Of a stretch of DNA of 64,000 bases, positions 16,180-63,899 are shown one piece after another; positions within the stretch are counted from its first letter, which is position 1; the number at the start of each line of letters is the position of its first letter. The DNA lies in the NCBI GenBank assembly GCA_023053545.1, contig JAKZAN010000007.1:2542001-2606000 (forward strand), in the 5' to 3' direction. Origin of the DNA: Lepidurus packardi (Eukaryota; Arthropoda; Branchiopoda; Notostraca; Triopsidae). The notes beneath the pieces were generated by a model. The model had not been told where the DNA came from and ran no database searches. It saw only the letters and a list, made by a program, of their open reading frames with translations. The position numbers and the translations under genes are program-made.

Positions 16180-19100
16180 TTAAACTCTGGGATTCCTCAT
16201 TTCGAACGCATTAGCATTACGAGGACTTGGGTAGGCGTTTGCATACGGATCAGCATACGCTCTTCCTCCATTTCCAGGTGGCGCTGTAGCTGCTTTAAAG
16301 AAAAAGGCCAATTAATTGAACAAATTTCTTGAAAATATCTCAAAAGAAAATATATATATATATATATATTAATAATAGTAATAATTAGTACGTTTCGGTC
16401 GGTTGTAATGTCCTCGACCGTCACCATAGCCATGAGCGGGGCCATTAGGGGGCGGAGCCCGGTTAGGAGCCGGGTACAAAGGCGTTTGTGCCGTGGCAGT
16501 TCCTGGAGCAGTGTCTGGCGCAGGAGCAGCGCCGCCCCCAGGCGGTTGATGACGTTTTCGCCGGAGCGTGCTGTACGGATGACGTAAAGTCTCTGTTATT
16601 CTGAGAGCGGGCTGTTTCTTAGGATTCGAAGACGGCGTGTGGACGGCACAACACTTGATGAACACACCCATGAAGAGCACAAAGCCCACGCCCATGAGTA
16701 GAACTGCCCACCAGTACTCGGTGATCCATTGAGCGATCGTGAGCAGGGTTTCCCGGTTAAAAAGGAGGTTTTTAAGTCGAGCCAAGGGTCCTTCCGCGTC
16801 CACTGCTCTGCATTTCAGGAACACGTCGCAGTAACCCTATAGGAATGAAAATATCCCAGGATTAATTATAGAACAATAACTATTGTTGAATAGTTTAGTT
16901 TGACAATAACTCAAGTTTTACCTGGTAGTTATCACAAGGAGAACCCGGACGTAAGGAAATTCCATCTGCTAACTGCAACTCCACAGTCAATTCGGAAGTG
17001 CTCTTGCACGTGGCGTTCATTCCACGCGAAGCGTGTAAGCACGCCAATTCGCACAGTTTCCGCTTGTCGTCGATATTTTGCGACGTGAGGAAGCACTCAC
17101 GCAGGCCCCACTTGGAGCAAATCGAACCCGAACATTCGCCACTCTGGCATACTTGAGTCTTCCCATTGCATTCCGTGCCATTCGCTTTGGGCGGAGGTAA
17201 AGGACAGCGCGCAGAAGAACCGTTGCAAGTTGCAAATCCACTGCATTCACTTTCGCCTTTGCACTGGAGGCTTCGCGTGGCTGTGACAAACGTGCAGCTG
17301 CTCGTGCAGCAAGTGCCTTCGCTGGGACTAAAAATACATAAGAAAGAATCTTTTCAATTAACTAGCTCTCATTTTGATTTTAATTGAATTACTAATCAAA
17401 AAATTTAATTCACTGTTTCACTACAGTGGTGCCTCGCATAATGAACATGGTCCCGCATTACAAACCGCACGCGCGCTCTGTTGTTTTTTACATTTGAAAT
17501 TTGTGGAAAGTTCCGTGTTTTTTTTTAGTGTTGTCAAAATGGCACCATAGAGACCGTTAGTGGGAAGATTAGAAAAGAACTTATTACTGAAATGAAGCAA
17601 GAAATCATAGATAAAAAAAAGTCTTAGGAACTAGAGTTTGTGGATCTTGCAGCAAAATATGGAGTGATCAAGTGAACTATGGCAACAATTTAAGCCAATA
17701 GAGAATCAATCGCGAAAGCTAAGGTGGCCAAGGGAGTCTTAAGAGTTTGTTCATAGATGTACAGAAAATCGATCAGTGGTGGAATGGAGAGGTTGTTGTT
17801 CGTTTTTATTAATGAAAGGCTAATGAAAGGAGATCAAACCTCGCAGGAAATAATTCGTAAGAAAGCCAGGGTCACGAATAAAAAGCTTAAAAGATCCACT
17901 CCAGGAACAAACTCGCAAGCTTTAGAACAAGAGGAGGAAGAGTTCAAAGCCTGTAGGGGGTGGTTTCCTAGGTTTCAGAAAAGAAGTTGCATCCACAGTG
18001 TCAATGCAAAATTTTAAGATTTTTCGCGATTTTGGACCGGCCTCGGGAACGGATCAAAATTATTCCCATACTAACTTATGAGAAACGGCGTCCCGCATAA
18101 AGAACGATTCCCGTAATGAACGCCGTCCTGGACCGGATTGCGTTCGTTATGCGAGGCACCACTGAATTTTGAGAACTCGTGAACGGCTAACGAAACGAAA
18201 AGGAAGGAAAAACATCCCTTCCTTATGATAACGAAGACGTCGAGCTTCTTTCGAAATACGCTTTAAAAAAAAAAAAAAAAAAAAATTTTTACCTGCATTG
18301 CTTGCCAGGACGACGCTTACAGCCTTGAGCGGTCGGATCACGTCTTCTGTCCTCATCGGATACGACACGTGGATAGCAGCAAGTTTCTTGGCATTCTGCG
18401 TCATCGTATCCGCAATCGCACTCCTCGGTCTCTTCCACGATCTTGTTCCCGCAAAAGGCACCGTTCCATTCGGTAAAACAGTTCTTTTTCCGGCCTTCCT
18501 GCAAGGCATCTAATACAGAAGAAACGTTTCCGGTGGAACAATTGGAGAATTTGCTATTGTTGGGCCGTTCACCGGAAGTGGCCGACGCGAACATGATATA
18601 ATTGCCATTTTGACCTCCAGGTCGACATTGATTTGGATAATCGTGCTGTCAAAAGCAAAATAATTGCCATTTTTAACAAAAATAAAAGGAAACATTTCAA
18701 GAATTAAAGGAACTGAGGTATTTTAACGAGACAAAGAGTTTGTCATGAAAACAAGATATGATTCAGAATCTATAGTGTAAAATTATGTAATTACCGGCGA
18801 GCCAAAATTGTGGCCAATCTCATGGGCAAGAGTAAGTTGTGACACTTTGGGAGGGACGCGACTGTTGTAATTGACAAAGGTGATGATACCCGTATTAAGA
18901 GATCGTCTGGTAGTACGTGGATAGCCTGCGACATTCTCGGTATAGGTCTTGAATCGTTCGCAGATGCCACCGGAAGCTCCTGAGGCTGAAGCCACCCAAG
19001 CAAGGCCCAAGGTTCCACCCGTGAAATCTCGGTAAGTGAAGACGTATGCCAAGCAAAAGTCTTCGTGATTGCCTTGGGAGTGGAGGTTGAGAAAATTGCT

Positions 19101-22100
19101 CACGTCGATATTCGGCAGACAAAACTTGTTTTCATCCCCTCGCCAACCGTGTTCGCACGCTTCGTAATCGTCCATCTATAAAAGTAAGAACGAGACACAC
19201 TGTAAATTTCAAACTTTCCTAAAGGAGTTTAAAGTTATCAAAATCAACGTGATTTATAGACTAAATGTACTTTGATCCGTTGGACTTCGAAGCGAATCAT
19301 TCGATGCTGGTATTTGCCATCGAAACGCGTGTTCATGTAAATGAGGTTTACGGCCTTGACGTGCTGGGCAATGAGCGACGAGATTTCTTCGCGCGTACGC
19401 ACAGCGTCGCGCTTCTCTTGCTCGTAAATATGGCGCCAAATCAAGGGATCCGTTTGGATGAAGAGTGAGCAGGTGCCTTTGGTGCTGGAGCTCTCTCTGC
19501 TCTGTCGTTTGCTTCGTTTTCTGCTTTCAAAAGTGCCCGTGTTGGCTTCCAACGAGTATTTGTAATAACCGGGGTGGTTTTTGGCCATGGCTGTCTCCCA
19601 ATCGTCTCTGGGCGACTTGTGCGGCCCAAAATCTGTCACTTCGTTCATTCTATTAACGTTTGGGCCTGTTTTGGGAGGGTGTGGGTTCAACTCCACCTGT
19701 TCCTCTGACACAGCGCTGTTTTGAACGCTATCCATCCAAGCCGCCACTTCATCTGTCGCTCCACAACCAGGTGCGTGGCCTAAACACAGTAATATAATAG
19801 TATGTACATATTATTAGTATTTTTCAGAATACTTTTCCGGCGCGTATCATAAGGGTCGATCACATGTTCATCCTTGTAAATGACTGAATGAAATTGGGAA
19901 CCATTATGATTTGGGAAGTATTTCTGGGCTCTTTCCACGTAGAAAGTGCCCTCTTTGGTATGAATCTTCCCATCGAAGATACCATCGCGCAACGAACCAA
20001 ACGCTAACGCATCTGGTTCACCTAAAGAAGTGAAAAAAAGGTTACATGTCAGTTGCAAAGGGTTTTGGAATATTTATATACATATTCCTAACAGCAAAAC
20101 TTTGTACTTTTTTTTACAAACTACAATAGACGCGCTTATTGTGATGACTAGTTATTAGAATCAGCCGCTTTATGGAATCAAATTTTAAAGGACCGATTCA
20201 AAGTGAATATTGATTGCATTTTAATCGGTTATTGGAATCACACTTAGGATACTGGAATAAATTTCAAACGAATCTTCACATGTTCACGAAACTACAGTAG
20301 TGATTGCTATACGGACTTTGCATACTAACCAATGACATTGCTTTTACGTCGTTTTGACCAATCCTGTCCTTTCCAGCTTACTATTACGCTTAGGGAGAAA
20401 TTCATTCTAAACTCCTCTGTCACTTAAATGAGCAAATTATTGAATTACCAGTTCCTTTAATTGAATGGGAAAATTAAAAAGATATCGAGTTGAAAACCCT
20501 AGCTAAGCGTAAGAGTAGGCTTCAAAGGCGCAGTGTTACTTGTGTTTTAGACGTGTGGTTATACAAAAATGGCGACGAGCAAGAAAAGAGTTGATTCAAG
20601 TGTAAAAGAGAAGTTTTGGCTCATTGTAGCTTATGACAAATTAACTTTAAAAGATTTGTTAGAAAGGGAAGCGGCCATTAAGTTAGGAATTAATGAATCA
20701 TCTCTATCAAAATTGTTGAAAAAACGTTACGAAATAAACAATGGTGGGTGTCGTGAATTTAGAAAAAGGAAACGTGTTGGAAAGTGTCAAAAAGTAGATG
20801 ATGTTTTGTTTCTTTCGTTTAAACAAGCCAGTTCCTTTCACGCGCAGATTAATCGTAGCATTCTATTGCAAATTCCAATTTTTGGTTATTAGAACCTCCG
20901 CTTAATAGAATCAATATTCACTTGAGAAACATGATCACAATAAGCGGTATCTACTATATTCATATAAGATGAACTATTCCTCTTAAACTTAGCGTGGAAA
21001 AATTGAAAAGTTTACCTATAAGCTCTCCTTCGTAATGGGTGGAGTCTACGTCCAAACGACGTCCGTCATGGCCCTCAATCACCAGATTGTCCGAAAACAC
21101 GGACGTATCTCTTCGTAGGCGGAGCTTAAAGGGTCGTGCATGAGCATGGAATTCTACTATGTGGGCGAAATCTGCGTCCAAAGCCCTTTTACTCCGTGTA
21201 TGATGGGACGGTTCATAATCTAGTGACTCGTAATGAAGGACATACTCGTTCAACCGTTCTAAACCGGAAAAGAAACACGAAAGCAAGAAAAAACAATGCA
21301 TTAACACATTCTGTCTCATTTCTTTGTTAAAAAACATAATAAATCCACCACAATCGTCCACACATTTGTAGGCTTCCACAGGTAACCTATTTTTCCGCAC
21401 TTCTTTTTGTAACACACGACTGAAGAGATAATTCGACTTCTAAGATAATTACAAATAATAAAGGCATATGGGAAGCCAGTGTCATGCATTAGAAAGCAAC
21501 CCGGTCTCCGCTTCTCGATTTCCATACTTCCTCTTTCTATCATCGATTCACCTTCAACTTCCCTTCTCACACAAAAAGAAATAAAAAGAAAAAACACCCA
21601 TTTCCTCAACGAAAATCGACGCAATTAACCTTGCGGGTTGGCTGAACTTGCTTCCCGGCGCCTAATTTATACACATTAAACCCCCTATTGTTGGACGTCC
21701 TTGCTTTTTGCCCAGAATCAGTGAAACTTCCCATTAAGCAATTTGGGATCCTTTGCAAGTTTATTTCGATTTGCTGCAAAACTCTTTCGAGAATAGCGGA
21801 CAAATTGGGACGGCTAGTCACGTGCGACCAAGAAGGGGAAACCGGTGTGTTACCACACTTGCCCGAAAGGCAATCGTTTGCTTTTATTTTCTGAGGGGCC
21901 TGTCAGAGGTGACGTCAATTCAGCATAGGATGTTGCTTCATAAAGGCGGTTGCTCCGTTAATAAGGGAGAGTTTAGTCCTGATTAACCACCAATGCTTGA
22001 TGTTCTCTTAAAAGGGGACTGAAAACGAGAAATGTTTTATGTAAGTGAGCGTTTTTCATTTCACTGCAAATTATAGAATTTTTATTTTTTTTACCTTTTG

Positions 22101-49501: not shown

Positions 49502-50384
49502 GACGTATGCATCGTTACGGAGTTTTACTTCTCTTTTTAGGGGGAATCCATTTCCAGAATGTCTGCAAACTATACAGATTGTAAAACGATTAATGTTTGT
49601 GAAGCAGAATAATTAATTTACTTTGAGTTAGTAAAAAGTCAATTGTTCTCAGAGCTTTTCTCTGGTTCTGTCCCATGTCGAAATAATAAAGAAACAAACT
49701 AAAAAGTAGTAAAAAAAACCTTATATGTTTATCGCCCAAGAAACAGACTTAAGTAATAAAGAAAACTACGTATTTTGATTAATGTCTTGACATTTATCAA
49801 AACATAACTTTCATGACTGGAATAATGAACACAAAAGATTTTACGAATGCAAAAATTAAGCTTATATTTTATATGATAAGGAAAATTTTTTATATGATAA
49901 GGAAAATCACCTTGTCTAGGCATGGATGTAAACCAAAATATGCAAAAGTTATAAACTCCCACAACGCGGAAAATGAGGAAAACTGTCAAGACACTCTTAA
50001 TAAATTATATTAAACCATAACTGAAATTCACATGTATTTATTATTTAAAAAAATAAAACCGACTGCAACGCCAGACAGAATAACGGTACTTGAATACAGG
50101 ATTACTATCCTTTGGCAAATAAATGATGATTGAAATTTTACTTGGGATATTTATAAGAATAGCCTTTATATAGTCTATAAACATTTTGTTATGCTCATAA
50201 GGATAACTAAGTATAAGCGCCATCAAGAGTTTTTTCCTGCAACTATAAGGAAATTTCCGTAATAATGCGCTGATTGGAAGCAGCGCAAATATATAGTAGG
50301 CAGAAACCTGCAGTTTGTTGCCAAAGCAACGCGACAGCATTTCAGTTTAGAAAAGGCTTCCAAAACCATTTTTTCTTTTCAGAA
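49502..50384. other. AT-rich region upstream of sulfotransferase 1
   Basis: No coding exon. There is a short duplicated word (TATATGATAAGGAAAAT twice at about 49869-49906). A pyrimidine tract ending TTTTCAG at 50382 just before the start codon marks a 5' UTR intron. Confidence 0.45.
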
Positions 50385-51572
50385 ATGTATTATCCTCGCA
50401 ACTTCAAAAGAGACGTAGGGACTCTAACTTTGGGGCTTTTCGTAGTAATCTTCGTAGTGACTGTAATCCGTAGTAAAAGCTTACAAGATGTCCAGTGGAC
50501 TAGACTGCAGGTAGAAAACGTTTCAAAAATATTTCCTGGCGGTATTTCCCAAGCTGACCCGCTGTCAAACTCTTTAAAAAACTTACTAGTGGAGCGAACG
50601 AATGAAGCTCGGAAGATATTGGCTGAGAATGGCATGGTCTTACCAGCTCCAGGAGGTGTAGCTAAGCGCATTTTGATAGTCACGACCTGGCGGAGTGGCT
50701 CTACTTTCACGGGCGAACTTCTGAGCGAGATCCCTGGTGTTGTCTACAATTCCGAGCCGTTCCGGTATTTGGCTTACAACAACATTCCCATCAATAACGC
50801 AACGCTGGCGGCAAACTACGTTCACGAGCTCACGCAACTCCATCAATGTAATTACGGGCCAATCCTGAAAAGATTCCGCAACAAGCAAATGCTGAAGAAT
50901 GTGGGGCTCAACACTAACGCAGCTTTTAAACTGTGTCGAGAGATCGAAACCGATGAATATTGCCAAAATTCAGAGCATGTCTCCTATGCCTGCCGGTACT
51001 TTCCAATCCAAGTCGACAAATTAGTCCGCATGCCCTTAAGTTATGTCGTACCACTTTTGCGTCAAAGAGAACATAACTTTCACGTGATCTTGCTTGTACG
51101 TGATCCCAGAGGCACCGTAGCCTCTCGTCGGAAGCAGATGTGGTGCATGAATCATTGCTCTGATCGAGAAAGGCTCTGTGGGCTCTTGCGCCAAAACTAT
51201 GAGACGGCACTCCGAACTGCGAAAGAGTTCCCTGATACTTTCACAGTTTTACGCTACGAAGACTTGGCGCTCGATCCGGAGAACGTCACTGCCAAGCTGC
51301 TCGAACGGGTCGGTATTCCGCTAACTAGGTCTGTGCGCACATACATCGAAGAACATACAAGTCGGGACAAAAGTCGAGTAACGGCTACAACAAGGCAAAA
51401 GGGCAGTCGTGTAGCTCTCTGGAAAACAACGTTGCCCTGGAAGGATATTGAGGAGACGCAGAACGTTTGCGGAGACACTTTAAGCAGGTATGGGTACCTC
51501 CCCATACCTACCATTAACTTTCTGAACAAAACTGAGACTTTGGTACCTTATTGGGAACTGACCACTTCATAA
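50385..51572 (+). CDS. Carbohydrate 6-O-sulfotransferase-like protein 1 (CHST1/3 family)
   Basis: A type II Golgi membrane enzyme transferring sulfate from PAPS to sugar hydroxyls, probably on glycosaminoglycan or N-acetylglucosamine/galactose chains. 395 residues in one coding exon. A short cytosolic end is followed by a membrane anchor at about 11-28 (VGTLTLGLFVVIFVVTVI), a stem, the 5'-phosphosulfate loop TTWRSGSTFTGELL (about 100-113), SEPFRYL, the 3'-phosphate site LLVRDPRGTVASRRK, RYEDLALDPE, and the C-terminal GSRVALWKTTLPW block. The start follows a splice acceptor (TTTTCAG). It is first of three tandem copies and very close to the second at DNA level in the catalytic part. The acceptor sugar cannot be told from sequence. 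Confidence 0.88.
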   Translation: MYYPRNFKRDVGTLTLGLFVVIFVVTVIRSKSLQDVQWTRLQVENVSKIFPGGISQADPLSNSLKNLLVERTNEARKILAENGMVLPAPGGVAKRILIVTTWRSGSTFTGELLSEIPGVVYNSEPFRYLAYNNIPINNATLAANYVHELTQLHQCNYGPILKRFRNKQMLKNVGLNTNAAFKLCREIETDEYCQNSEHVSYACRYFPIQVDKLVRMPLSYVVPLLRQREHNFHVILLVRDPRGTVASRRKQMWCMNHCSDRERLCGLLRQNYETALRTAKEFPDTFTVLRYEDLALDPENVTAKLLERVGIPLTRSVRTYIEEHTSRDKSRVTATTRQKGSRVALWKTTLPWKDIEETQNVCGDTLSRYGYLPIPTINFLNKTETLVPYWELTTS

Positions 51573-52259: not shown

Positions 52260-52787
52260 TTTACAGCCAGGGGCGTCGCGAGGGGGTTTCCATTGGGGGG
52301 GGGGGTGTGGAGACCTTAGTTTTACCGACTGTAGTTGACGATTTTACCGACTGTATTATAGTTTCTATCTTATATTTTCTATCGACTATTAAAGACACAG
52401 TATAGACGTTTCACAGTATGCGAACAGGGCTATCTTCCAATGTTAAGGTTTTCTGACGACCTTCTCGGTCCCCCGAGTAATATTCAGGTAAAAGGCCAGA
52501 AAATGAAAGGGTACATTCGCAAACCTCCCAGTGCAGTTCAAAAAAGGTCACGACGGTTTACAAAGCGCGTAATTTAAATCTATTGCTTTAAACTATGTGA
52601 GCTTAAAATAAAAGATGAATTAACTAGGTCAAAGCACAACACGTATACACATTATAGACTATTTCGCGTTACCCAGGTTGCACCACGAGGAGGCAGTCTA
52701 TTTTGCAACCCATACATAGGTGTTTTATTCAGCAAAGTATATTCAGAAATTCAGCATATTTGCTGAATTTCTTACGGCTGCTGAATT

Positions 52788-54899
52788 TCAATGGTGGATG
52801 AATTTACGGCTGAATTTCAATGGTGGAACCACTTGCTGAAAACCTTGCGACCCGCTTCCGTCAGTACTACGATAAATCCTGATACCATCAGTGGTATAAT
52901 CAGCTGAATCTCCGAGATAAAAACGAACCTCGTCAGACAGATCGTCAGGAATGGGCATATTACCCTCAGCACTAGATCGCAAATACTTGATAAACCATTC
53001 ATAACTAGTGTTTTGCTCGTCGGGAACGCTCAACTTACGACATTGACGAGACAGAGCATCAGCATGGGGAATATCTTTACCCGGACGGTGCCGGACCTCG
53101 AAACTGTATTGACCTAACCACAATACCCATCTAGCCAGTCGAGGAGATCTATCCCCCAACGAACGCCAAAACTTCAACGCCTGGTGGTCGGTTATTATGG
53201 TGAATGGACGACAGAGCAAATAATGTCGGTATTTTTCGATACCATTCAACAGAGCCAAAAACTCTTGCTCCGTCGTGGAATAATTCACCTCCGCGGGTTT
53301 CCACAAACCTGACGCATACGAAACAGCATAATCCAAACCCTCGTCGTCTTCTTGCGACAACACTGCGCCCCAACCCACCCTACTGGCGTCAGTTGTCAGA
53401 ATAAGCGGCCTACCCAGGTCAATGTTACGTAAAACAGGCTCGGAACAAAGTTTATCCTTTAGCTGGCCAAAAACTAAACCACACTCATCACTCCACACAA
53501 ACGGTACTTCTTTACGAGTTAACCGAACAATGGGTGCTACAATCCGCGCGAAATCTGGTACAAAATGACGATAATAGCTACACAACCCAATGAACTGCCT
53601 AACCTCTCTGACATTTTGTGGGACAGGCCATTATCGGACCTTCTCGGATTTATCTAAGGCTGGTCTAATTTTGTCACCTGCGAGAACGTGACCCAAGAAC
53701 GTAACTTCACGGGTAAAGAAACTGCACTTTTCAGGGTTCAGTTTTAACCCATGTTCTCTCAACCGGTCTAATACTAACCTCACATCTTCAAGGTGCTTAT
53801 CGAAACTTGAACTAAACACCAACACATCATCAAGATAAATTAAGGCAATTTGCCACTGAAGACCTGTCAGAACTCGGTTCATCATCCGCTGGAACGTACT
53901 TGTGGCGTTGCATAATCCAAACGGTAGAACGCGGAACTGGTACAATCCTTCGCTCATAGTAAAAGCAGTAACTTTTTGCGAATCTACGTCCATCGGAGCC
54001 TGCCAATACCCGCTTCTCTGATCCAAACTCGTGTACCAACTAGCGGTACCTATTGCACCTAACAAATCATCAATCCTAGGCAAGGGGTAACTATCTTTTA
54101 CGGTCACATTATTGACTTTGCGGAAGTCAACACAAAATCGATAAGAGTCATCCTTCTTTTTGACCAATACTATGGGACTAGCCCATGGGGATGTACTTGG
54201 CTCGATTATACCGGAATCAAGCATGTCCCTTATCTGCTCATGCACTACATCTCGCAAATGAACTGGTACTCTATAGGGCACCTGCTTGATCGGATGACCC
54301 GACGTCACGATCTTATGACTAACCTCCTTCACGCGACCCACCTCACCGTGGAGAGAAAATACATCTTTGTACTCTTCCAGAAGGGAACGTACCTTACTGG
54401 ACTGCTGGTCGGATAACTCTTTCAGCTGGGGAGGCCAAACGGATGTCTCCTCCCCTGGACCTACATTAGCTCGACTACAAGGTGGTAACACCTCGTCAGT
54501 CAACAAGACAGCTGACACTTCACCAATGACGGAATCTGCCTCTAACCTAAACGGCTGATCTGCCGTGTTGCAAATCAATACGGTAACTACTTCAGTGGTG
54601 TCGTTAACACAAGCTCTAGCAACTAGGATTCCTTTGCCTACGAACTCTTTACACGGTTCTATAATTAAAGTTTCTCCTAACTCGACTCTACGCGAACAAA
54701 AGGGCAAACGGACTGAAGCAGATAAAAAAGTTTCAGAGTCAGGTGGCAAAACCACGGCTTCTCTGATCTTAACTGAACCTCTGAACGCATCCAACAGTAC
54801 CTCTTGACCAAGTAATCTTAACGTACCTTTACCAAAATCAAGTTGGGCAGAAGTAGCTTTTAGGAAATCCATGCATTTCCAATTGCAAATCCAATCCAT
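52788..54899 (-). pseudogene. Ty3/gypsy pol, 5' half: protease remnant, reverse transcriptase, RNase H
   Basis: Minus-strand pol with family motifs in order: the end of the protease (MDFLKA), reverse transcriptase with PLPRIDDLL, VLPFGLCNA and the catalytic YLDDVLVFS, FLGHVLAG, then the RNase H region with LTTDASRVGWGAVLSQ and ITDHQALKFW. A single in-frame TAA at about 53631 interrupts it between the reverse transcriptase and RNase H. The protease catalytic part is missing: an LTR-derived fragment stands in its place upstream. The reading ends by running into the junction at 52788-52818, so integrase is absent on this strand. Confidence 0.9.
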
Positions 54900-54900
54900 G

Positions 54901-54978
54901 GTTTTTAATAGTTTTATTTAGTAAAAAGAAAGCAGAGAAACAGCACACTTGTACTCACAGACCAAAAACACTGTCATA
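54901..54978 (-). repeat. LTR-derived fragment inserted at the gag-pol junction
   Basis: About 78 bp nearly identical to part of the LTRs (for example 55878-55957), in the same orientation as the element. The end of the gag frame (MTVFLVCEYKCAVSLLSFY) is read from this LTR fragment. It replaces the start of the protease. Confidence 0.85.
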
Positions 54979-55748
54979 ACAGGACAATCCCTTACTAAGT
55001 GTCCGGACTGCTTACAACCATAACATTTCGAGCCTGACGCTCCGTCCTTGCTAGGGGAAGATTTCGACTTACCCCCGCTGCTTGTCTTATCCGTAATCGA
55101 CAACTTACGGTTAGACGCGGACTTGATCGGTGTAGATTGGCGGACAACTTCTTTGGACACCCGCATGATGTTCAACTTCTCCACATGGGCAGCAACGGAT
55201 GTCAGCTGGGCATCGTAGAAACGGGGCCGCCAATCGGCCGGTAGCCGTTTCACAAATTGCTCAGTGACAAAACGCTCGATGATGTCTTCTGCGACGATGT
55301 CGGGGTTAGCAGCTTTAAACAACCGTCGAAGATCGCTTCCGTATACATGGGCTGACTCCTCCCGCGACAGGGTGCGATTGTAGAATTCCGTCAGCTTCAA
55401 ACGTTGGGCTTCTTTGGGTTGAAATACGCGAGACAGCCCCTCCACGAGCTCGGTGAAGGAAGTAGGCGGGGGAGACAAACAGTCTAACACACATTCAGCA
55501 TCCTCTACCATTAACGCTGGTAAGATGCGAAACATTTGCCCATCGGTCCAACTGTTAGCTACCGCTACTCGACGAAACCGGGCCATGAACTTGCTGAAAT
55601 CGCCCTTACCATCGAACTCAGGCGCACTGACAACCAACTTCTGCTGCGCCATTTCGACAGCCTCACTCACTCCAATGTCAATTGTCGATAACTCAGCCTC
55701 AACTGGGTCCACTTTTACAGTAACACCGAGAAAACTGGGAGCCGCCAC
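54918..55748 (-). pseudogene. Ty3/gypsy gag with zinc knuckle, altered C-terminus
   Basis: A 276-residue frame. It has a capsid-like helical middle (FDGKGDFSKFMARFRRVA, FQPKEAQRLKLTEFYNRTL) and a nucleocapsid zinc knuckle CYGCKQSGHLVRDC of CCHC type near residue 250. Its last 19 residues come from the LTR fragment, so the natural end and the gag-pol transition are lost. It lies just downstream of the central LTR on the minus strand. Confidence 0.82.
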
Positions 55749-55791
55749 TGTTCTTTCACTTTAATGTACTAAAGCCAAAACCAAAACCGGA

Positions 55792-55815
55792 ACGAATAAA
55801 TTCGGATCCCACCGC
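55792..55815 (-). promoter_or_regulatory. Primer-binding site resembling the 3' end of tRNA-Leu
   Basis: Directly inside the minus-strand LTR end, the sequence reads GTCAGCGGTGGGATCCGAA. Apart from one base in the T-loop, GCGGTGGGATCCGAA is the complement of the TTCGAATCCCACCGC stretch found near the 3' end of animal tRNA-Leu. The match to the CCA end itself is unclear. Confidence 0.55.
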
Positions 55816-55819
55816 TGAC

Positions 55820-56221
55820 TGCTGAATTTCTTACTTTTATTAAACTCAACAACTTAACAAGGTAGACGTAGGCAGGCGGTTTTAATAGTTTCATTTAGTA
55901 AAAAGAAAGCAGAGAAACAGCACACTTGTACTCACAGACCAAAAACACTGTCATAACAGAACCCAAGTGTTTCGTCACAGTCGAAAGACAGCACATAATA
56001 ACAACTGCGGGTCGACTCTCCCCTGGCGCGACCCAGGCTTCACCTTTTATACCCGCGTCGTGTGCCACTTGTACTTATACCCTCGGCCTTCCACCGACGT
56101 GGACTTACATAGTTCTCCTGAAGGACAACACAACTTCTACACAACTTCTAAACCCCTACCAGAAGAACTTGTCCACGTCGGAGGAAAGCCAGGGGTATCG
56201 CCACGTGTGGGGATCTCAACA
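55820..56221 (-). repeat. Central LTR (5' LTR of the minus-strand half)
   Basis: 402 bp, the reverse complement of 57774-58176 with only a few differences. It starts TGTTGAGATCC and ends AAATTCAGCA (TG...CA). It has a TATAAAA box and an AATAAA in the same places as the other LTR. Confidence 0.92.
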
Positions 56222-56244
56222 ATCGAGCTTTTGTTATACCGAGA

Positions 56245-57695
56245 CTGATGCTCTGTCTCGTCAATGTCGTAAGTTGAGCGTTCCCGACGAGCAAAACACT
56301 AGTTATGAATGGTTTATCAAGTATTTGCGATCTAGTGCTGAGGGTAATATGCCCATTCCTGACGATCTGTCTGACGAGGTTCGTTTTTATCTCGGAGATT
56401 CAGCTGATTATACCACTGATGGTATCAGGATTTATCGTAGTACTGACGGAAGCGGGTCGCAAGGTTTTCAGCAAGTGGTTCCACCATTGTTGCGCAATGA
56501 AGTGTTGCGGTTGGCTCATGAAGCTCCAACCGCAGGGCATTTAGGGGTTCGCAAGACGCTTTCGCGTGTCACTCCTATGTATTATTGGTATAACCTTAAG
56601 AAGCAGGTTAGGGAGTATTGTCGGCAGTGTCCTAGTTGTTTATCAACGAAGATTGATTCTCGCCCACACCGTCAGCCGTTAAAATTCGTGCCTGTCATTG
56701 GCGAGCCGTTTTCTCAAGTCTCAATGGACATTCTGTCGTTGACAAGTGCTATTTCAGGAAATAAATATGTCTTGGTCGTTTCTGATTTGTTCACGAAATG
56801 GGTGGAGGTTTATGCGCTGTCTGATCAGACCGCGGAGAGTGTCTGTAATTGTTTAGTCAACTTTATTTGTCGTTTCGGAATCCCCAAGTCGATTCTCACC
56901 GACCAAGGGACAAATTTTGAGTCTCACTTGATAAGACGTTTGTGTGCAAGGTTAGGGATCAAGAAATTGCGCACTACGCCATATCACCCTGCGTGTAACG
57001 GACAAACTGAAAGGTTTAATCGCACTCTTTGTGAAATGTTAACCCATTATGTGGCCACCAACCAGAAAGATTGGGACAAGTGGTTGGATGTAGTTGTATT
57101 AGCGTATAGGACCGCAGAGCATGCCGTTACAGGTTACAGTCCCTTTGAGTTAGTGTTTGGGAGACAGGCAAGGGTCCCCTTAATCTCTGAGTTACTAGAC
57201 GACTCTTCTGAGGTCGAGGAACAGAGTTCATATGATGATTATGTAAAGGAGTTATGTAAGGGGTTGTCAGAGGCCAGAGGGTTAGCTTTAGGTTCTGTTC
57301 ATTCTTTGACCTGTAAAGATGTAGATGGGGATCGGAACAATTTCCGCTTGGGGGACGAGGTATTTTTAAAAGTGTTTCAACCCAAACGAGGGTTGCTGTC
57401 TAAATTGGCTCCTAGGGCGGTGGGCCCGTTCCGGATTATCCGTTGCTTGCCCCCGGATTTTGTCATTCAGCGAGGGCGTGTCCGTAAGTTGGTGCATGGA
57501 TCTAACTTACGTCGCGTACCGGATGGAATACGACCGATGGCAACAGTGAAGCCCCGAAGCCCAGACGAAGTCCCGTGTGGTGAAGCCAATTTGGATTCAG
57601 AAAGTGGTACGTCTGAAGATGGTTTCCTGACTAAAAATTTCACCAGCAGTCGAGGCCGTAGACGAGTGCCGAACCGAAGATACCTCGACGATTGA
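56245..57695 (+). pseudogene. Ty3/gypsy pol, 3' half: RNase H end and integrase
   Basis: The plus-strand frame opens in the RNase H-integrase linker and continues through a complete-looking integrase: an HHCC zinc finger (HEAPTAGHLG...CRQCPSC), the catalytic DDE residues in MDILSL, LTDQGTNFES and the NGQTERFNR block, and a GPF-type C-terminal module (LAPRAVGPFRII...VHGSNLRRV). It ends at a TGA (57693-57695), about 80 bp before the LTR. It has no gag, protease or reverse transcriptase upstream because an inverted LTR stands there instead. Confidence 0.9.
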
Positions 57696-57762
57696 ATCCT
57701 CCCCCCCAGCTCCAGTTGTGTGTGTATGTTCGTGTTTTCTTTTGTTTATGGGGTGTGAAATA

Positions 57763-57773
57763 GAGGTGGAGGA
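57763..57773 (+). promoter_or_regulatory. Polypurine tract before the 3' LTR
   Basis: GAGGTGGAGGA directly adjoining the TG start of the LTR at 57774. This is the expected plus-strand priming site of an LTR retrotransposon. Confidence 0.7.
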
Positions 57774-58176
57774 TGTTGAGATCCCCACACGTGGCGATAC
57801 CCCTGGCTTTCCTCCGACGTGGACAAGTTCTTCTGATAGGGGTTTAGAAGTTGTGTAGAAGTTGTGTTGTCCTTCAGGAGAACTATGTAAGTCCACGTCG
57901 GTGGAAGACCGAGGGTATAAGTACAAGTGGCACACGACGCGGGTATAAAAGGTGAAGCCTGGGTCGCGCCAAGGAGAGAGTCGACCCGCAGTTGTTATTA
58001 TGTGCTGTCTTTCGACTGAGACGAAACACTTGGGTTCTGTTATGACAGTGTTTTTGGTCTGTGAGTACAAGTGTGCTGTTTCTCTGCTTTCTTTTTACTA
58101 AATGAAACTATTAAAACCGCCTGCCTACGTCTACCTTGTTAAGTTGTTGAGTTTAATAAAAGTAAGAAATTCAGCA
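57774..58176 (+). repeat. 3' LTR of the plus-strand half
   Basis: 403 bp from TGTTGAGATCC to AAATTCAGCA. A TATA box (TATAAAA, 57944-57950) marks the promoter and AATAAA at 58155-58160 the polyadenylation signal near the end. Confidence 0.92.
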
Positions 58177-58871
58177 TGAAATTTCTCAGCATATATTCTA
58201 AATTTCTCAGCAAAGAAATTCAGCATAGTATATAGGTTTAACTCCATATACTATAAAATACCCATGTATATTAATGTCTATATGTGTTGTTATGACTATT
58301 TATGTCTATATACGAGTTATCCATTACATTGGTCTTTGCAACTGTTCCTAAATGTTACTAACTTTTGCAAGTTTAGTATTTTTCTTAACACTTTCAAATG
58401 CGCGCGTTGCCGGTAGGACCCTACGTCAGCCCAAAACTCCCTAGAGTGCCCGAGAGAAAGGTCACCAGTCCCCCGTTTTCTGAATGTTTTCTTCTCTTCT
58501 CGAACCCTTTTTCTAGTAGATTTGGAATGCCTACTTCTGGGGTAGGATGGGCAAGTCTGTGAATCCCCATCCCTCCTATGTTCCTTGTTACCCCCACATC
58601 CTCTTGAGACCGAGAAAATCGTGTTAATCCCTTTACATTGGAAGATACCCCCAGTTACCATACTGTGAAACCTTTATACTGTGATTAAAGATTTAAACAG
58701 TTATTATCGTAGTTATTTCCTTTAATTTTACGAGATTTATTGAATAATCCTCGTTTTATTTTCATTTTCCGAATTTTACCGACGGCGACCCAAATTTTAC
58801 CGAATCGGTTTTTGGCCAATTATTGGGGGGGTGGTGCACCCCCCCACCCCCCACCCCTCGCGACGCCCCTG
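58177..58871. other. Right part of the hAT-like element
   Basis: Non-coding. It starts with several copies of the words TCTCAGCA/ATTCAGCA, which also occur left of the gypsy block, and ends in the C-rich subterminal region and terminal repeat. Confidence 0.55.
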
Positions 58872-58879
58872 TTTACAGC

Positions 58880-59479
58880 ATCTTTGCAAGTTACATATTT
58901 TGTTAACTCTCATTTGAAGATTTTTCTTTTCTGCCTAAATACAAGTGCAGACAATAGAGCTGGGCTTTTATGACAGATTACAGTTCTGCCTCTCTGTCTA
59001 ATAATTAATCTGTTAGAAAATCTATACAGCTTTTATCATTATTATAGGTGTATAAAACGGAGAGCCTTGTTCGTAAGAGCTCGACAAACGCACACAGCAC
59101 AGCTGCCTTATTTACACTGTACTGTAGCGTCCTGGTTCCACGTATACAAATTGGGCAATAGGAACAATTGTGTACACACTGCATATTTACACTGCATAAT
59201 TGTTAATGGATCACTTAGTTTTACAATACGTTCCATTATACCTTTGAGAGGTCATAAAGTCATTCGAATGCTTAAAGGTTTCCTAACTTTGCATATTTTT
59301 CTAGATTGTTTATTATCAAATTGCGCATATGGATACAACGTAGGTACGTTTATACTTGCTACCAAGGTTGAACACGAGCTCAGTTTATTGTCAGTCTGTG
59401 GTGAAAGCTCAAAGCTCCAAGTCCTGGGGCAACAGGAACAATACAGACATAATCTACGCTTTGCGCTAGTGCTCAGATA
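58880..59479. other. Spacer upstream of sulfotransferase 2
   Basis: No coding exon recognised. CTCAG just before the start at 59480 could be a 3' splice site, as in the first gene. Confidence 0.35.
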
Positions 59480-60646
59480 ATGTTTATTCTTCATAATAAA
59501 ATAAAGTGTGCTCCTTCGATAATAGCTTGTCTCTTAATCTTTGTAGTGATGCTAATCCTGAACGACATCGGCAGAAACTACCAAGAAACCAGCTTACCGG
59601 TACCAAACGTTCCTGCCGATATTTCACTAGCAGACCTGTCAATAAGCGATTCGTTCAAAGCCTCGTTAACGAAACGAATGAATGCGGATCGGAAAGTACT
59701 GGCCTACAACGGCATGATTTTACCACCCCCAGGGAGCGTGTCCAAGCGCATTTTACTTGTATCGACTTTTCGGAGTGGATCCACTTTCACAGGCGAACTA
59801 CTGAGCACGATACCCGGAGTTTTTTACATTTCCGAGCCGTTCCGGTACTTGGCTTATACTAATATTCCCACTTATAACGAAACGATAGCCGCAATGTACG
59901 CTGATATTTTGACACAAGTCCACGAGTGTAATAATGGACCACTGTTGGCAGGATTTCGGAACTACAAAATGCTGAAAAACATGGGGCTCAACCTCAATAC
60001 AGCTTTCCAGCTCTGTCGAAAGACCGAATCCTACGAGTATTGCCAAAACCCTGACCGGTTGTCCTTTGCCTGTCGGTATTTTCCGATCCAAGTCGATAAA
60101 ATCATCCGTATGCCGCTACGTTATGTTGTGCCCTTTTTACGCCTGCCGAAACACAACTACCACGTGGTTTTGCTGGTGCGTGATCCCAGAGGTACCGTAG
60201 CCTCTCGTCGGAAGCAGATTTGGTGCATGAACGCATGCGCCGATCGGGGAGGCTTATGTGCTCTCTTACGGGATAACTATGAAACGGCGGTACGAGCTGG
60301 GCAAGAATTCCCGGACACTTTCACGGTGTTACGCTACGAAGACTTGGCGCTCGATCCGGAGAACGTCGTTTCCGAGCTGCTTAAACGTATCGGCATTCCG
60401 CTAACGAGTGGTATCAGGGCTTACATCGAAGAACATACTGGCCACGACGGAAGCAGAATAACAGAGACCACAAGGCAAAAAGGGAGTCGTGTGGCACTCT
60501 GGAAGACAAGTTTGCCCTGGGAACACATCGAAGAGACGCAAAAGCTTTGTGGAGATATTTTGGCAAAGTATGGTTACCTGCCTGTACTAAACTCCAACTC
60601 TATAAACGAAACTGATACGGTAGTTCCTAATTGGAAAATTCAGTAG
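59480..60646 (+). CDS. Carbohydrate 6-O-sulfotransferase-like protein 2 (CHST1/3 family)
   Basis: 388 residues in one coding exon: a short N-terminal tail, a membrane anchor at about 11-29 (PSIIACLLIFVVMLILNDI), then the PAPS loop VSTFRSGSTFTGELL, SEPFRYLAY, the 3'-phosphate site LLVRDPRGTVASRRK, LRYEDLALDPENV and GSRVALWKTSLPW. Golgi type II topology is inferred. The catalytic half is close to the first gene, with stretches of identical DNA (for example tacgaagacttggcgctcga in both), so either a fairly recent duplication or gene conversion is likely. The stem region is much more different. AATAAA at 60807-60812 is the probable 3' end. Confidence 0.88.
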   Translation: MFILHNKIKCAPSIIACLLIFVVMLILNDIGRNYQETSLPVPNVPADISLADLSISDSFKASLTKRMNADRKVLAYNGMILPPPGSVSKRILLVSTFRSGSTFTGELLSTIPGVFYISEPFRYLAYTNIPTYNETIAAMYADILTQVHECNNGPLLAGFRNYKMLKNMGLNLNTAFQLCRKTESYEYCQNPDRLSFACRYFPIQVDKIIRMPLRYVVPFLRLPKHNYHVVLLVRDPRGTVASRRKQIWCMNACADRGGLCALLRDNYETAVRAGQEFPDTFTVLRYEDLALDPENVVSELLKRIGIPLTSGIRAYIEEHTGHDGSRITETTRQKGSRVALWKTSLPWEHIEETQKLCGDILAKYGYLPVLNSNSINETDTVVPNWKIQ

Positions 60647-60929: not shown

Positions 60930-62558
60930 CACAGTACCTTTCCCGCCTTTCCGACACCACATTGCACTCACTATACTTTAGACAAGAACGTAGAGCTTTT
61001 GTGTATTCAAATTGGACAATCTGCCCGGCATCTATTAAAAAACATTGATACCAAAGTCTTCCAAAAAGACGTTTCATTTCCGGATTTCTCCGCTACATGT
61101 CGTCAGGTTACTTGGCATGCTTGGTGCAAAATTTTACTGATATTTTCATATTTTTTTTCGTCTTGCTTGGTCTTTTTAAAAGAGGTTCTCAAATTGTGCC
61201 AGGTCGACGTGAGTTGGATAATCCGATGAAAGGAATCAACAGGATCCTAGTCACTATAAGACAGTGAACTAAGTCACCAAATGAGTGAATAAAAACTAGT
61301 GAACTCGTATTAAAAGTACGTTTTAAGTACAAGAGACCGACAAAAAGACGACCGAACACGACACAAGGACGACAGATGTGTCACAGGGACTACTTTAATA
61401 ATGAACATCCCGCAAGAGATGTGGATGTTCAATATATACATGAATATATACATTTATAGTTAAAGGTTTTATAGGTTTTATGAATATATACATTTACATT
61501 TATAGACAATATATACATTTATAGGTAAAGTTTCGACGCTTCCTGAGTGAGAATCGTTGCATTATAATGTTGCTCCATCGCAACAAAAAGGCGTAAGCCG
61601 TCTTTGCTTGAGAATTTCCGTCTTAACCTTCACGAGGTCGCCGTTCGCCACACAACTTTCCAAACTTCCAATTTACCATTTTGCAGATACTACAGGCTTC
61701 TCAGAAGCCCTTGCTGCCGGTACTTCTTTTCGGCGGATTTTTTGGCAAAGTGTATCAATTGTTTTAATGGTATTTTAGTTTTAATTAGTCTCATGTGAAA
61801 TCAGATGACAATGATGACCAGCTTAGAATCAAGTCCAACTTTTTCGTAAGTGTTATAATGAAATAAGTGCGAACAACGATAATCTTGGCAGTTACCAAGA
61901 CAATACAAGTTGAAATATATATCGTCTTATACTTCCTGCCACGTATCGCGTCGTATAATAGACTTGTTGAAGCTACTTTTATCCCCGTGTAAAGTAGGCA
62001 GTAGTAACTATGAACACATAAACAAACACATCAAGTGAAATTTCATTCGAGCATATAATAACTTTCGTTCGGGATTAAAATTACTTTATTGTTCATACGT
62101 AATGTAATATTGCTCTAAAAGGTATTAATACCTATAGAACGCCCCCTATTATTGTTCTATTTTAAAATTTGGAGCATAGGGTTCACTAGACCCCTCCCGC
62201 AACTAACACTCATTGATAGGAAAGAGACAAAAAATGCAGCTGGACTTTTCTAACAGGTAATCTGATGTAAAAAATTTAATGCAAACCTTGCCCTATTACA
62301 TATATGCATCCTGTGTGTGTCATAAAGCTATCAACAGTAATTTTATTATTTTCAGTTGTGTACACAAAAGGCTACAAACCAGAACCGAGCCGTATAGTTT
62401 TCAGAGAGAAAGGAAGACGCGAGGACAAGTGTACGCTACAGAATCTCTGAGATACTGGAAACCAAAGGTGCAGATTCCAACCCCGTCCTTCTGAAGGACC
62501 AATCAACTCCAGACAAACTACAACTAGCGTTGAATTGAATTGAGTTAAGTTCAACCAT
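60930..62558. other. Spacer upstream of sulfotransferase 3
   Basis: AT-rich. It contains a short array of the words 'atatatacattta' and 'tatacatttatag' at about 61430-61525. No coding exon or RNA gene is recognised. Confidence 0.4.
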
Positions 62559-63899
62559 ATGAAGACTATTTTTTCATCTAGAATGTGTGTCTTCCGCAGC
62601 TCCAAAAAACAAACAGTGATCACTTTCTTAGGATCTTTCTGCTTCACGTTATTGATAGTACTGTATCGTTATGAGAGTTTCAAGAGTTACGGCTATGGAC
62701 AGAACAACCTAACCGAATTGTCAACTGCGTTAATGGATACTGCATCAGATCCCGTGTTTCTCTCGAAGGAAGAGCATAATCTTGTGATTCCTGTCAAAAG
62801 AAGCCCTAAGATGCTAAAACTGGACAGAATCCAGTTGAAAACATCCACCGTGAGCTCAAAAGATGAACAACGGCTCGGACGCTATTCGCTCTTCAAAGAA
62901 ACCGTGGTGAATCAAACAAGTCAAGCCCGGAAAGTGCTGGCCGACCACGGGATGGAATTACCCGCTTCAGGAGGAGTGGCGAAACGCGTTTTGCTTGTTA
63001 CTACATGGCGCAGCGGCTCTACGTTCACGGGCGAACTGCTGGCCGCAGTCCCAGGCGCTCTCTTCAACTTTGAGCCGCTAGTCCACATGATTTACAAGGA
63101 TGTTGAGCTGATGGACAGAAAATCGGCGACCTTCTTCATGCATGAGATTCAGCGCATGCTCCAGTGCGACTACGCTCCTTTGCACCACAACCTCCGGTAC
63201 ACTGAAACCTTGAAAACTGTATTGCTCCAACACAACAAAGCTTTCGAAGAGATTTGCCGTGCCACCAAGACCCGAAAGTGCCACCAAGAGGAGCTTCTGT
63301 CTTTTGCATGCAAGTATTTCCCCGTGCAAGTCACCAAGTCGGTGCGCATGCCTCTACGCTACGTATTGCCCCTTTTGCGACAAATGGAACTCAACCTCCA
63401 CGTGGTGCTCCTGGTCAGGGACCCGCGTGGGACGATGGCGTCGCGTCGGAGGTTGATGTGGTGCATGGAACCGTGTTCGAATATCGGGAAACATTGCGCA
63501 CTCCTCCGGGATAACTATGAGCATGCCTTAAAAGCTTCTAAGGAGTTCCCGGATAGTTTCACGGTCTTACGCTACGAAGATTTAGCTATGGACCCTGTTA
63601 ATGTCTCTGCCTGGCTACTGCGACGCTTAGAAATCCCTCAAACGCCTTCTGTGACGAAGTACGTCGAAACCCATATTGGTAGCGACCGGGGTCGAGAGAC
63701 AGAGACGGTCCGAGTACGCGGTAGTCGAGTTTCTCTCTGGCAAGAGAATCTGCCGTGGGATGACGTACAAGTCATTCAGAACACATGTGGGGACACCCTA
63801 GAGAAGTACGGGTACGTGCCAGTAGCCAACTCCGCCACCTTAAATGAAACCGAGACTCTAATTCATGACTGGAGTTTATCATCTAATGTTGTAGACTGA
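62559..63899 (+). CDS. Carbohydrate 6-O-sulfotransferase-like protein 3 (CHST1/3 family)
   Basis: 446 residues in one coding exon. It has a longer stem than its neighbours. The membrane anchor is at about 19-36 (TVITFLGSFCFTLLIVLY), then TTWRSGSTFTGELL (PAPS 5' loop), NFEPLVHMI, LLVRDPRGTMASRRRLMWC (3'-phosphate site), LRYEDLAMDPVNV and GSRVSLWQENLPW. It is the most diverged of the three, with many synonymous and amino-acid changes. The FEP instead of SEP after the loop is nearer the vertebrate CHST pattern. AATAAA at about 63929-63934 is the probable end. Membrane topology and sugar specificity are inferred. Confidence 0.88.
   Translation: MKTIFSSRMCVFRSSKKQTVITFLGSFCFTLLIVLYRYESFKSYGYGQNNLTELSTALMDTASDPVFLSKEEHNLVIPVKRSPKMLKLDRIQLKTSTVSSKDEQRLGRYSLFKETVVNQTSQARKVLADHGMELPASGGVAKRVLLVTTWRSGSTFTGELLAAVPGALFNFEPLVHMIYKDVELMDRKSATFFMHEIQRMLQCDYAPLHHNLRYTETLKTVLLQHNKAFEEICRATKTRKCHQEELLSFACKYFPVQVTKSVRMPLRYVLPLLRQMELNLHVVLLVRDPRGTMASRRRLMWCMEPCSNIGKHCALLRDNYEHALKASKEFPDSFTVLRYEDLAMDPVNVSAWLLRRLEIPQTPSVTKYVETHIGSDRGRETETVRVRGSRVSLWQENLPWDDVQVIQNTCGDTLEKYGYVPVANSATLNETETLIHDWSLSSNVVD

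What the first reader, a model, noticed from the sequence alone, without database searches (positions are those of the whole stretch)
52761..58176. Two gypsy half-elements joined head to head with a 245-bp shared inverted segment
The minus-strand 5' half and plus-strand 3' half overlap by 245 bp that read the same in inverted orientation. The central LTR's outer end abuts the other half across a 23-bp filler. Simple autointegration of one cDNA would leave only a few shared bases, so two cDNAs, template switching during reverse transcription, or an assembly error is needed. Together the halves cover most of an element.
Basis: partly seen in the sequence, partly recalled or inferred. Interest (0 to 1): 0.75.

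Follow-up and report, generated by a model that had tools for sequence, protein, structure and literature searches.

The report
Retrotransposon halves patched in head to head
Two overlapping, opposite-facing halves of a Ty3/gypsy retrotransposon sit inside a small DNA transposon, most likely because broken retrotransposon DNA was pasted into a chromosome break by error-prone repair, which is a known kind of accident.

Summary
Two halves of a Ty3/gypsy element face opposite ways: minus strand 56221→52818 (LTR, gag, RT, RNase H) and plus strand 56245→58176 (integrase, LTR). They share 245 bp, 100% identical and inverted. A 23-bp filler joins the outer (U3) tip of the central LTR to the second half. 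The LTRs differ at 5 of 403 positions.

New here: (1) the complex lies within one hAT-type element (52268-58871; perfect 18-bp inverted ends, 8-bp duplication), so both outer flanks belong together. (2) Both outer junctions carry extra direct and inverted copies of the LTR's U5 tip, and the left one repeats the pol end, as templated end joining would leave. (3) No 4-6 bp target duplication at the U5 tips. (4) An 83-nt LTR piece lies at the gag/pol boundary, and no protease was detected there.

Best explanation: cDNA broken or incompletely double-stranded in pol was captured head to head at a chromosome break by Pol-theta-like end joining. Clean autointegration and in-place inversion fit worse; assembly error is unlikely but untested with reads. 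One versus two cDNAs is unresolved, and some junction repeats could be host sequence. A new member of a known kind, modest interest. No reads, other copies or related genomes could be examined.

The parts
52260..52267 (.). Left copy of 8-bp target-site duplication TTTACAGC of the hAT-type element
   Evidence: sequence printed
52268..52285 (+). Left terminal inverted repeat of the hAT-type host element
52396..52529 (+). hAT-type element, internal segment, 71% inverted match to 58683-58550
52745..52772 (.). 28-bp near-perfect palindrome: two U5-tip copies facing each other, left outer junction
52761..52775 (-). 15-bp exact copy of the LTR U5 tip, minus orientation
52776..52817 (.). Left junction filler: repeats of the U5 tip and of the pol end (52789-52798)
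52818..53062 (-). 245-bp shared segment, minus-strand copy (between RNase H and integrase domains)
52818..53630 (-). RNase H part of pol
53634..54917 (-). Pol ORF with reverse transcriptase domain; one in-frame stop separates it from the RNase H ORF
54903..54985 (-). 83-nt LTR fragment (98%) at the gag/pol boundary; no protease detected there
54918..55760 (-). Gag ORF; zinc knuckle match weak (E 0.037, under the curated cut-off); its last 22 codons read into the LTR fragment
55820..56221 (-). Central LTR (5' LTR of the minus half)
56222..56244 (.). 23-bp filler between LTR U3 tip and second half; 56240-56245 could pair with 56255-56260 (6 bp)
56245..56489 (+). 245-bp shared segment, plus-strand copy
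56247..57692 (+). Integrase half of pol: H2C2 zinc finger and rve core, ORF open to the end
57754..57773 (+). Purine-rich stretch just before the right LTR, presumed polypurine tract
   Evidence: sequence printed; role inferred
57774..58176 (+). Right LTR (3' LTR of the plus half)
58177..58225 (.). Right outer junction: 49 bp ending in a 13-bp exact copy of the U5 tip (58213-58225), with two looser U5-like stretches before it
   Evidence: looser stretches read
58854..58871 (-). Right terminal inverted repeat of the hAT-type host element
58872..58879 (.). Right copy of 8-bp target-site duplication TTTACAGC
   Evidence: sequence printed

Best explanation
A Ty3/gypsy cDNA was not integrated in the normal way. 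It was broken, or incompletely double-stranded, near the RNase H/integrase boundary, so that both pieces carried the same 245 bp. The piece from the 5' LTR to pol and the piece from pol to the 3' LTR were joined head to head (5' LTR U3 tip to pol, with 23 bp of filler), and the product was captured at a double-strand break in the middle of a hAT-type element. Pol-theta-like (templated) end joining sealed the outer ends, copying the U5 tip and the pol end several times. SHOWN: the anatomy, the U5-tip copies, the coherent hAT-type flanks, no 4-6 bp duplication at the U5 tips. INFERRED: the break, the capture, the repair pathway, and that the halves came from one molecule or two sister molecules.
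For: Inverted 245-bp identity and inverted LTRs. The U5 tip GAAATTCAGCA (up to 1 mismatch) occurs 4 times in about 200 bp of outer-junction sequence against 3 times in 58.5 kb of the rest of the window (expected 0.01, Poisson P about 5e-10; 0 of 2000 Markov shuffles reach 4, maximum 1; the U3 tip 0 times); motif and zones were chosen after they had been seen, so the P is descriptive. The left filler also repeats the pol end, and a 28-bp palindrome of two U5 tips lies beside it. In Drosophila, insertions of more than three bases at end-joining junctions nearly always have templates in the flanks, and some are strings of imperfect repeats of break-end sequence (PMC2895639, passages and one section). 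Short templated inverted duplications occur at yeast breaks (PMC11724301, abstract and two sections). No matching 4, 5 or 6 bp at the U5 tips. The halves' inner ends lie 245 bp apart on about 4.3 kb of internal sequence; two uniformly random breakpoints would be this close with probability 0.11. Capture of LTR-element cDNA at breaks is reported in yeast and mouse (PMC10802722, PMC4516963; passages).
Against: The unoccupied hAT-type sequence is unknown, so part of the U5-like repeats could be host sequence or an old target duplication: left 52746-52772 and right 58178-58207 share a 30-column direct repeat (score 17, reached by 3 of 1000 shuffle pairs), 52727-52742 and 58218-58233 match at 15 of 16 bases (E 0.051), and several 9-bp words are shared near, not at, the tips. 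The fillers are long: average insert length in the fly study was 5.5 nt with wild-type Pol theta and 13.3 nt with the D5 allele, though the two longest listed there are about as long as those here. The 23-bp central filler has no source found in the window. The 245-bp overlap exceeds that of inverted double insertions in yeast rad27 mutants (median 50 bp). Mouse captures seen in passages had truncated LTRs, whereas here LTR tips are intact. The preference for one molecule over two rests on one P of 0.11.
Confidence: 0.55

Rival explanations
1. Two independent cDNAs (or fragments from one particle) were joined before or during insertion; the 245-bp overlap is where two unrelated ends happened to fall.
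For: Explains a head-to-head join without a staggered break. Several retrotransposon pieces at one break are reported (PMC4516963, passages). The LTRs differ at 5 of 403 positions, as two source copies might. In yeast, of 342 inverted insertions from transformed single-stranded DNA only 16% carried identical barcodes, so most were between two molecules.
Against: Two random breakpoints lie within 245 bp with probability 0.11. The shared segment has 0 differences in 245 while the LTRs have 5 in 403 (Poisson P 0.048, Fisher P 0.16), weak either way.
Confidence: 0.17
2. A normally integrated copy suffered an internal inversion in place, with a staggered 245-bp break in pol and a second break just outside the 5' LTR.
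For: Staggered breaks create inverted duplications at inversion breakpoints in Drosophila (PMC5080602, passages); the order of parts is what this predicts.
Against: The bases outside the central LTR (CGAT, TCGAT, CTCGAT read toward the LTR) do not match those outside the right LTR (TGAA, TGAAA, TGAAAT). It does not explain U5-tip copies on the left, nor those beyond the right LTR, which it leaves unbroken.
Confidence: 0.13
3. Template switching during reverse transcription made one head-to-head cDNA, which integrase then inserted through two U5 tips.
For: Exact U5-tip sequence lies at both outer ends (52761 and 58176), and the LTR fragment at the gag/pol boundary shows that this copy or its parent went through another switch or join.
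Against: No 4-6 bp target duplication at those tips; the left U5 tip is only 15 bp long and is followed by filler repeating the pol end, not by LTR.
Confidence: 0.08
4. Autointegration of one cDNA: the U3 and U5 tips attacked pol of the same molecule, and the circle was later opened and inserted.
For: The U3 tip of the central LTR is joined to pol, and U5-tip sequences lie beside pol on the left, one of them (52745-52756) in the orientation an inversion circle would have.
Against: Autointegration should share only a target-duplication-sized overlap, not 245 bp; a 23-bp filler separates tip and target; the U5 copy nearest to pol on the left has the opposite orientation; an extra opening and insertion step is needed.
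Confidence: 0.03
5. Assembly error joining two separate copies.
For: No reads were available; repeats can be misjoined.
Against: One hAT-type element with perfect 18-bp ends and matching 8-bp target duplication brackets the whole complex; the LTR copies are not collapsed (5 differences); the central join carries a 23-bp filler found nowhere else in the window.
Confidence: 0.04

Closest known systems
Capture of LTR-retrotransposon cDNA at double-strand breaks (Ty1 in yeast, PMC10802722; MuERV-L and MaLR in mouse zygotes, PMC4516963)
   Same: LTR-element pieces inserted mostly without the element's own target duplication, microhomology or unexplained bases at joins, several pieces possible at one break (passages).
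   Different: Mouse pieces named in the passages were 327-950 bp with LTRs truncated or absent, and some had 4-bp or 10-bp duplications; this one keeps two LTRs with intact tips and most of an element, with repeated U5-tip copies at both outer joins.
Templated inverted insertions at breaks (PMC11724301)
   Same: Two pieces from one locus inserted in inverted orientation with partly overlapping sequence; short foldback inverted duplications near breaks.
   Different: Median overlap about 50 bp in rad27 mutants, little or none in rtt105 mutants; rDNA and Ty were excluded from that count; here 245 bp and pieces of kilobases.
Staggered-break inversions of Drosophila (PMC5080602)
   Same: Inverted duplication at both ends of an inverted segment (passages).
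   Different: Those are chromosomal inversions of host DNA; here the LTR flanks do not match as an in-place inversion predicts.
Ty3/gypsy (Metaviridae) retrotransposons
   Same: RT piece matches Ty3-G Gag-Pol (7q5b, E 3.3e-39; best hit 4ol8, E 5.9e-40); RT, RNase H and integrase domains; TG...CA LTRs.
   Different: No protease detected, LTR fragment at the gag/pol boundary, one stop in pol, head-to-head arrangement.

Membership tests
Ty3/gypsy retrotransposon (source of the pieces) | RT, RNase H and integrase domains, RT nearest Ty3 | tested here: met
Ty3/gypsy retrotransposon (source of the pieces) | Direct LTRs flanking gag-pol | tested here: not met
   LTRs are inverted: a rearranged derivative, not an ordinary copy
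Ty3/gypsy retrotransposon (source of the pieces) | Aspartic protease between gag and RT | tested here: not met
   No Pfam match at max_evalue 10 in 54384-54917, no protease match in gag (filters drop most matches above about 0.1); LTR fragment at that place
Integrase-mediated insertion | 4-6 bp target duplication at the LTR tips | tested here: not met
cDNA capture at a double-strand break | No element target duplication at the tips; filler at joins | tested here: met
cDNA capture at a double-strand break | Interrupted host sequence known from an empty site | not testable with these tools
   Genome not held; no relatives in the scans made
Pol-theta-type templated end joining | Insertions copied from nearby break ends, direct and inverted | tested here: inconclusive
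   Strong excess of U5-tip copies, but host origin of some repeats is not excluded
Autointegration product | Overlap of target-duplication size between joined segments | tested here: not met
   245 bp
Central DNA flap (second plus-strand primer) as source of the overlap | Polypurine tract just before the downstream piece | tested here: inconclusive
   The 33 nt before the breakpoint hold no such tract; the tract scan was too strict, since it also missed the presumed tract before the right LTR
hAT non-autonomous element (host) | Terminal inverted repeats and 8-bp target duplication | tested here: met
   that these mark hAT elements is recalled
hAT non-autonomous element (host) | Sequence relation to a hAT family member | not tested
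   No hAT library on hand

The most novel reading that the evidence does not exclude
The inverted LTR pair (about 400 bp) and the inverted 245 bp could make any transcript through the locus fold into a hairpin against the family's own LTR and pol, making this a natural silencing locus for the gypsy family, as the recalled Mu killer locus of maize is for MuDR. The sequence allows it; no expression or small-RNA data were examined.
Probability: 0.05. Interest if true: 0.6.

Novelty: new member of a known kind. Interest (0 to 1): 0.3.

Why it matters
It is a readable scar of retrotransposon cDNA entering a chromosome without ordinary integration, inside a host transposon whose ends show that the flanks belong together. 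Its junctions could test, in a natural genome, whether templated end joining is a route for cDNA capture. It changes no general picture.

Tried and rejected
Clean autointegration: disfavoured by the 245-bp overlap and the filler. Clean integrase insertion through two U5 tips: no 4-6 bp duplication; 9-bp shared words exist between the flanks, the nearest ending 1 base before the left tip and starting 10 bases after the right tip, and I read them as part of the repeated U5-like motif. Central-flap origin of the 245 bp: no purine tract in the 33 nt before the breakpoint, but my tract scan was too strict to count. Telling one molecule from two by divergence: inconclusive (Fisher P 0.16). Source of the 23-bp filler: none in the window at up to 3 mismatches. 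Relatives: hAT-type end in viral contigs 0 matches, a longer form in genome contigs 0; RT piece in viral contigs, 2 stretches matched a pattern, none confirmed; integrase piece, 25 stretches in genome contigs and 6 in viral contigs, none confirmed; LTR 39-mer in viral contigs 0. These collections are viral or prokaryotic, so their silence says little about a eukaryote. Literature: searches for head-to-head or inverted LTR retrotransposons gave 0, 1 (off topic by its title and abstract start) and 0 papers; a wider search on autointegration and circles gave 73, of which 20 were listed and none read for that purpose. The library is open-access only, so I make no claim that such a case is unpublished. 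PMC12368964 was seen in passages and not used.
Full report
WHAT IS THERE. The two arms 52818-53062 and 56245-56489 are 245 nt long, 100% complementary, 3182 nt apart. The LTRs are inverted to each other: 55820-56221 reads on the minus strand, 57774-58176 on the plus strand, with 4 substitutions and one single-base indel in 403 columns. The minus half runs from the LTR through a gag ORF (54918-55760), a pol ORF with reverse transcriptase (53634-54917) and, after one in-frame stop, RNase H (down to 52818); the plus half holds the integrase zinc finger and core and stays open to 57692. The RT piece matches Ty3-G Gag-Pol (7q5b, E 3.3e-39) and, best, 4ol8 (E 5.9e-40, listed as reverse transcriptase/ribonuclease H). 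Between the central LTR's U3 tip (56221) and the plus half (56245) lie 23 bp with no second match in the window at up to 3 mismatches.

THE HOST. The whole complex lies within one hAT-type element: perfect 18-bp inverted ends at 52268-52285 and 58854-58871, the only two matches in the window at up to 3 mismatches, with none in 100 shuffles, an 8-bp duplication TTTACAGC on both sides, and a 71% inverted internal match 52396-52529 / 58683-58550. Hence the left and right flanks are one locus, which speaks against a misjoin of two loci at the outer ends. The central join is not tested by this. That an 8-bp duplication and CAGGGG-type ends mark hAT elements is recalled, not from a call.

THE OUTER JUNCTIONS. 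Left: 52745-52756 is AGAAATTCAGCA, then TATT, then TGCTGAATTTCTTAC (52761-52775), a 15-bp exact copy of the LTR's U5 tip in minus orientation; after it come a further 12-bp match (52778-52789), a repeat of the pol end (52789-52798) and another U5-like copy (52809-52817), then pol. Right: after the LTR ends at 58176, 49 bp follow that end in a 13-bp exact copy of the U5 tip (58213-58225), with two looser variants in between (read). GAAATTCAGCA with up to one mismatch occurs 4 times in about 200 bp of junction sequence and 3 times in 58.5 kb elsewhere (Poisson P about 5e-10; 0 of 2000 shuffles; the U3 tip 0 times); a fifth copy overlaps the first base of the pol segment. The motif and zones were picked after inspection. 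At the exact U5 tips there is no 4, 5 or 6 bp match across the complex.

READING. Repeated direct and inverted copies of break-end sequence are what templated end joining leaves. In Drosophila, templates for insertions over three bases were almost always found in the flanks; most insertions in flies with one Pol theta allele (D5/2003) were complex, with many imperfect repeats (PMC2895639, passages and one section). Yeast work reports short foldback inverted duplications and, in rad27 and RPA-related mutants, double insertions from one locus in inverted orientation (PMC11724301, abstract and two sections). Capture of Ty1 and of MuERV-L and MaLR sequence at breaks is reported (PMC10802722 and PMC4516963, passages only). 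I therefore read the locus as cDNA halves captured at a break in the hAT-type element. The halves' inner ends lie within 245 bp of each other on about 4.3 kb; two uniformly random breakpoints do so with probability 0.11, which mildly favours one molecule broken or gapped there. That is weak; the divergence test (0 of 245 against 5 of 403, Fisher P 0.16) does not decide, and in yeast most barcoded inverted insertions from transformed DNA joined two molecules (16% of 342 identical).

AGAINST THIS READING. The empty hAT-type sequence is unknown. Left 52746-52772 and right 58178-58207 share a 30-column direct repeat (score 17; 3 of 1000 shuffle pairs reach it), and 52727-52742 and 58218-58233 match at 15 of 16 bases (E 0.051), so part of what I call filler may be host sequence, perhaps an old duplication of the target. 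The fillers are longer than the averages in the fly study (5.5 and 13.3 nt). The central filler has no known source; only a 6-bp foldback (56240-56245 / 56255-56260) hints at templating, and 6 bp is little. An in-place inversion with a staggered break predicts the order of parts equally well (PMC5080602, passages), but predicts matching bases outside the two LTRs, which are not found, and does not account for U5-tip copies beyond the unbroken right LTR.

A SECOND SCAR IN THE SAME COPY. At 54903-54985 an 83-nt piece of LTR (98%) lies between the gag zinc knuckle and pol. No protease was detected there or in gag, and the following sequence resumes with what looks like the end of a protease domain (my reading, not from a call). 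So this copy or its parent seems to have lost protease through another join or template switch. Whether this is shared by the family could not be tested.

VERDICT. Real at the sequence level, coherent, and explained by known kinds of event: a new member of a known kind. One or two cDNAs, the repair pathway and the date remain inferred. No whole genome is held for the window, and the viral and prokaryote scans made found no relatives.

Noticed in passing
54903-54985 (minus): 83-nt LTR fragment, 98% identical, at the gag/pol boundary; no protease domain detected there.
   Followed up: partly
52268-58871: hAT-type non-autonomous element with perfect 18-bp inverted ends and 8-bp duplication TTTACAGC that hosts the gypsy complex.
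   Followed up: partly
50274-51569, 59453-60643, 62544-63896 (plus): Three sulfotransferase ORFs on the same strand (Pfam Sulfotransfer_1/3); the nested transposons sit between the first and the second.
   Followed up: partly
10656-11189 (plus) and 16369-19810 (minus): ADAM10-type cysteine-rich domain at the first place; ORFs at the second look similar by eye and lie in opposite orientation (not searched).
   Followed up: no
58824-58846: Short G/C-rich palindrome just inside the right end of the hAT-type element.
   Followed up: no
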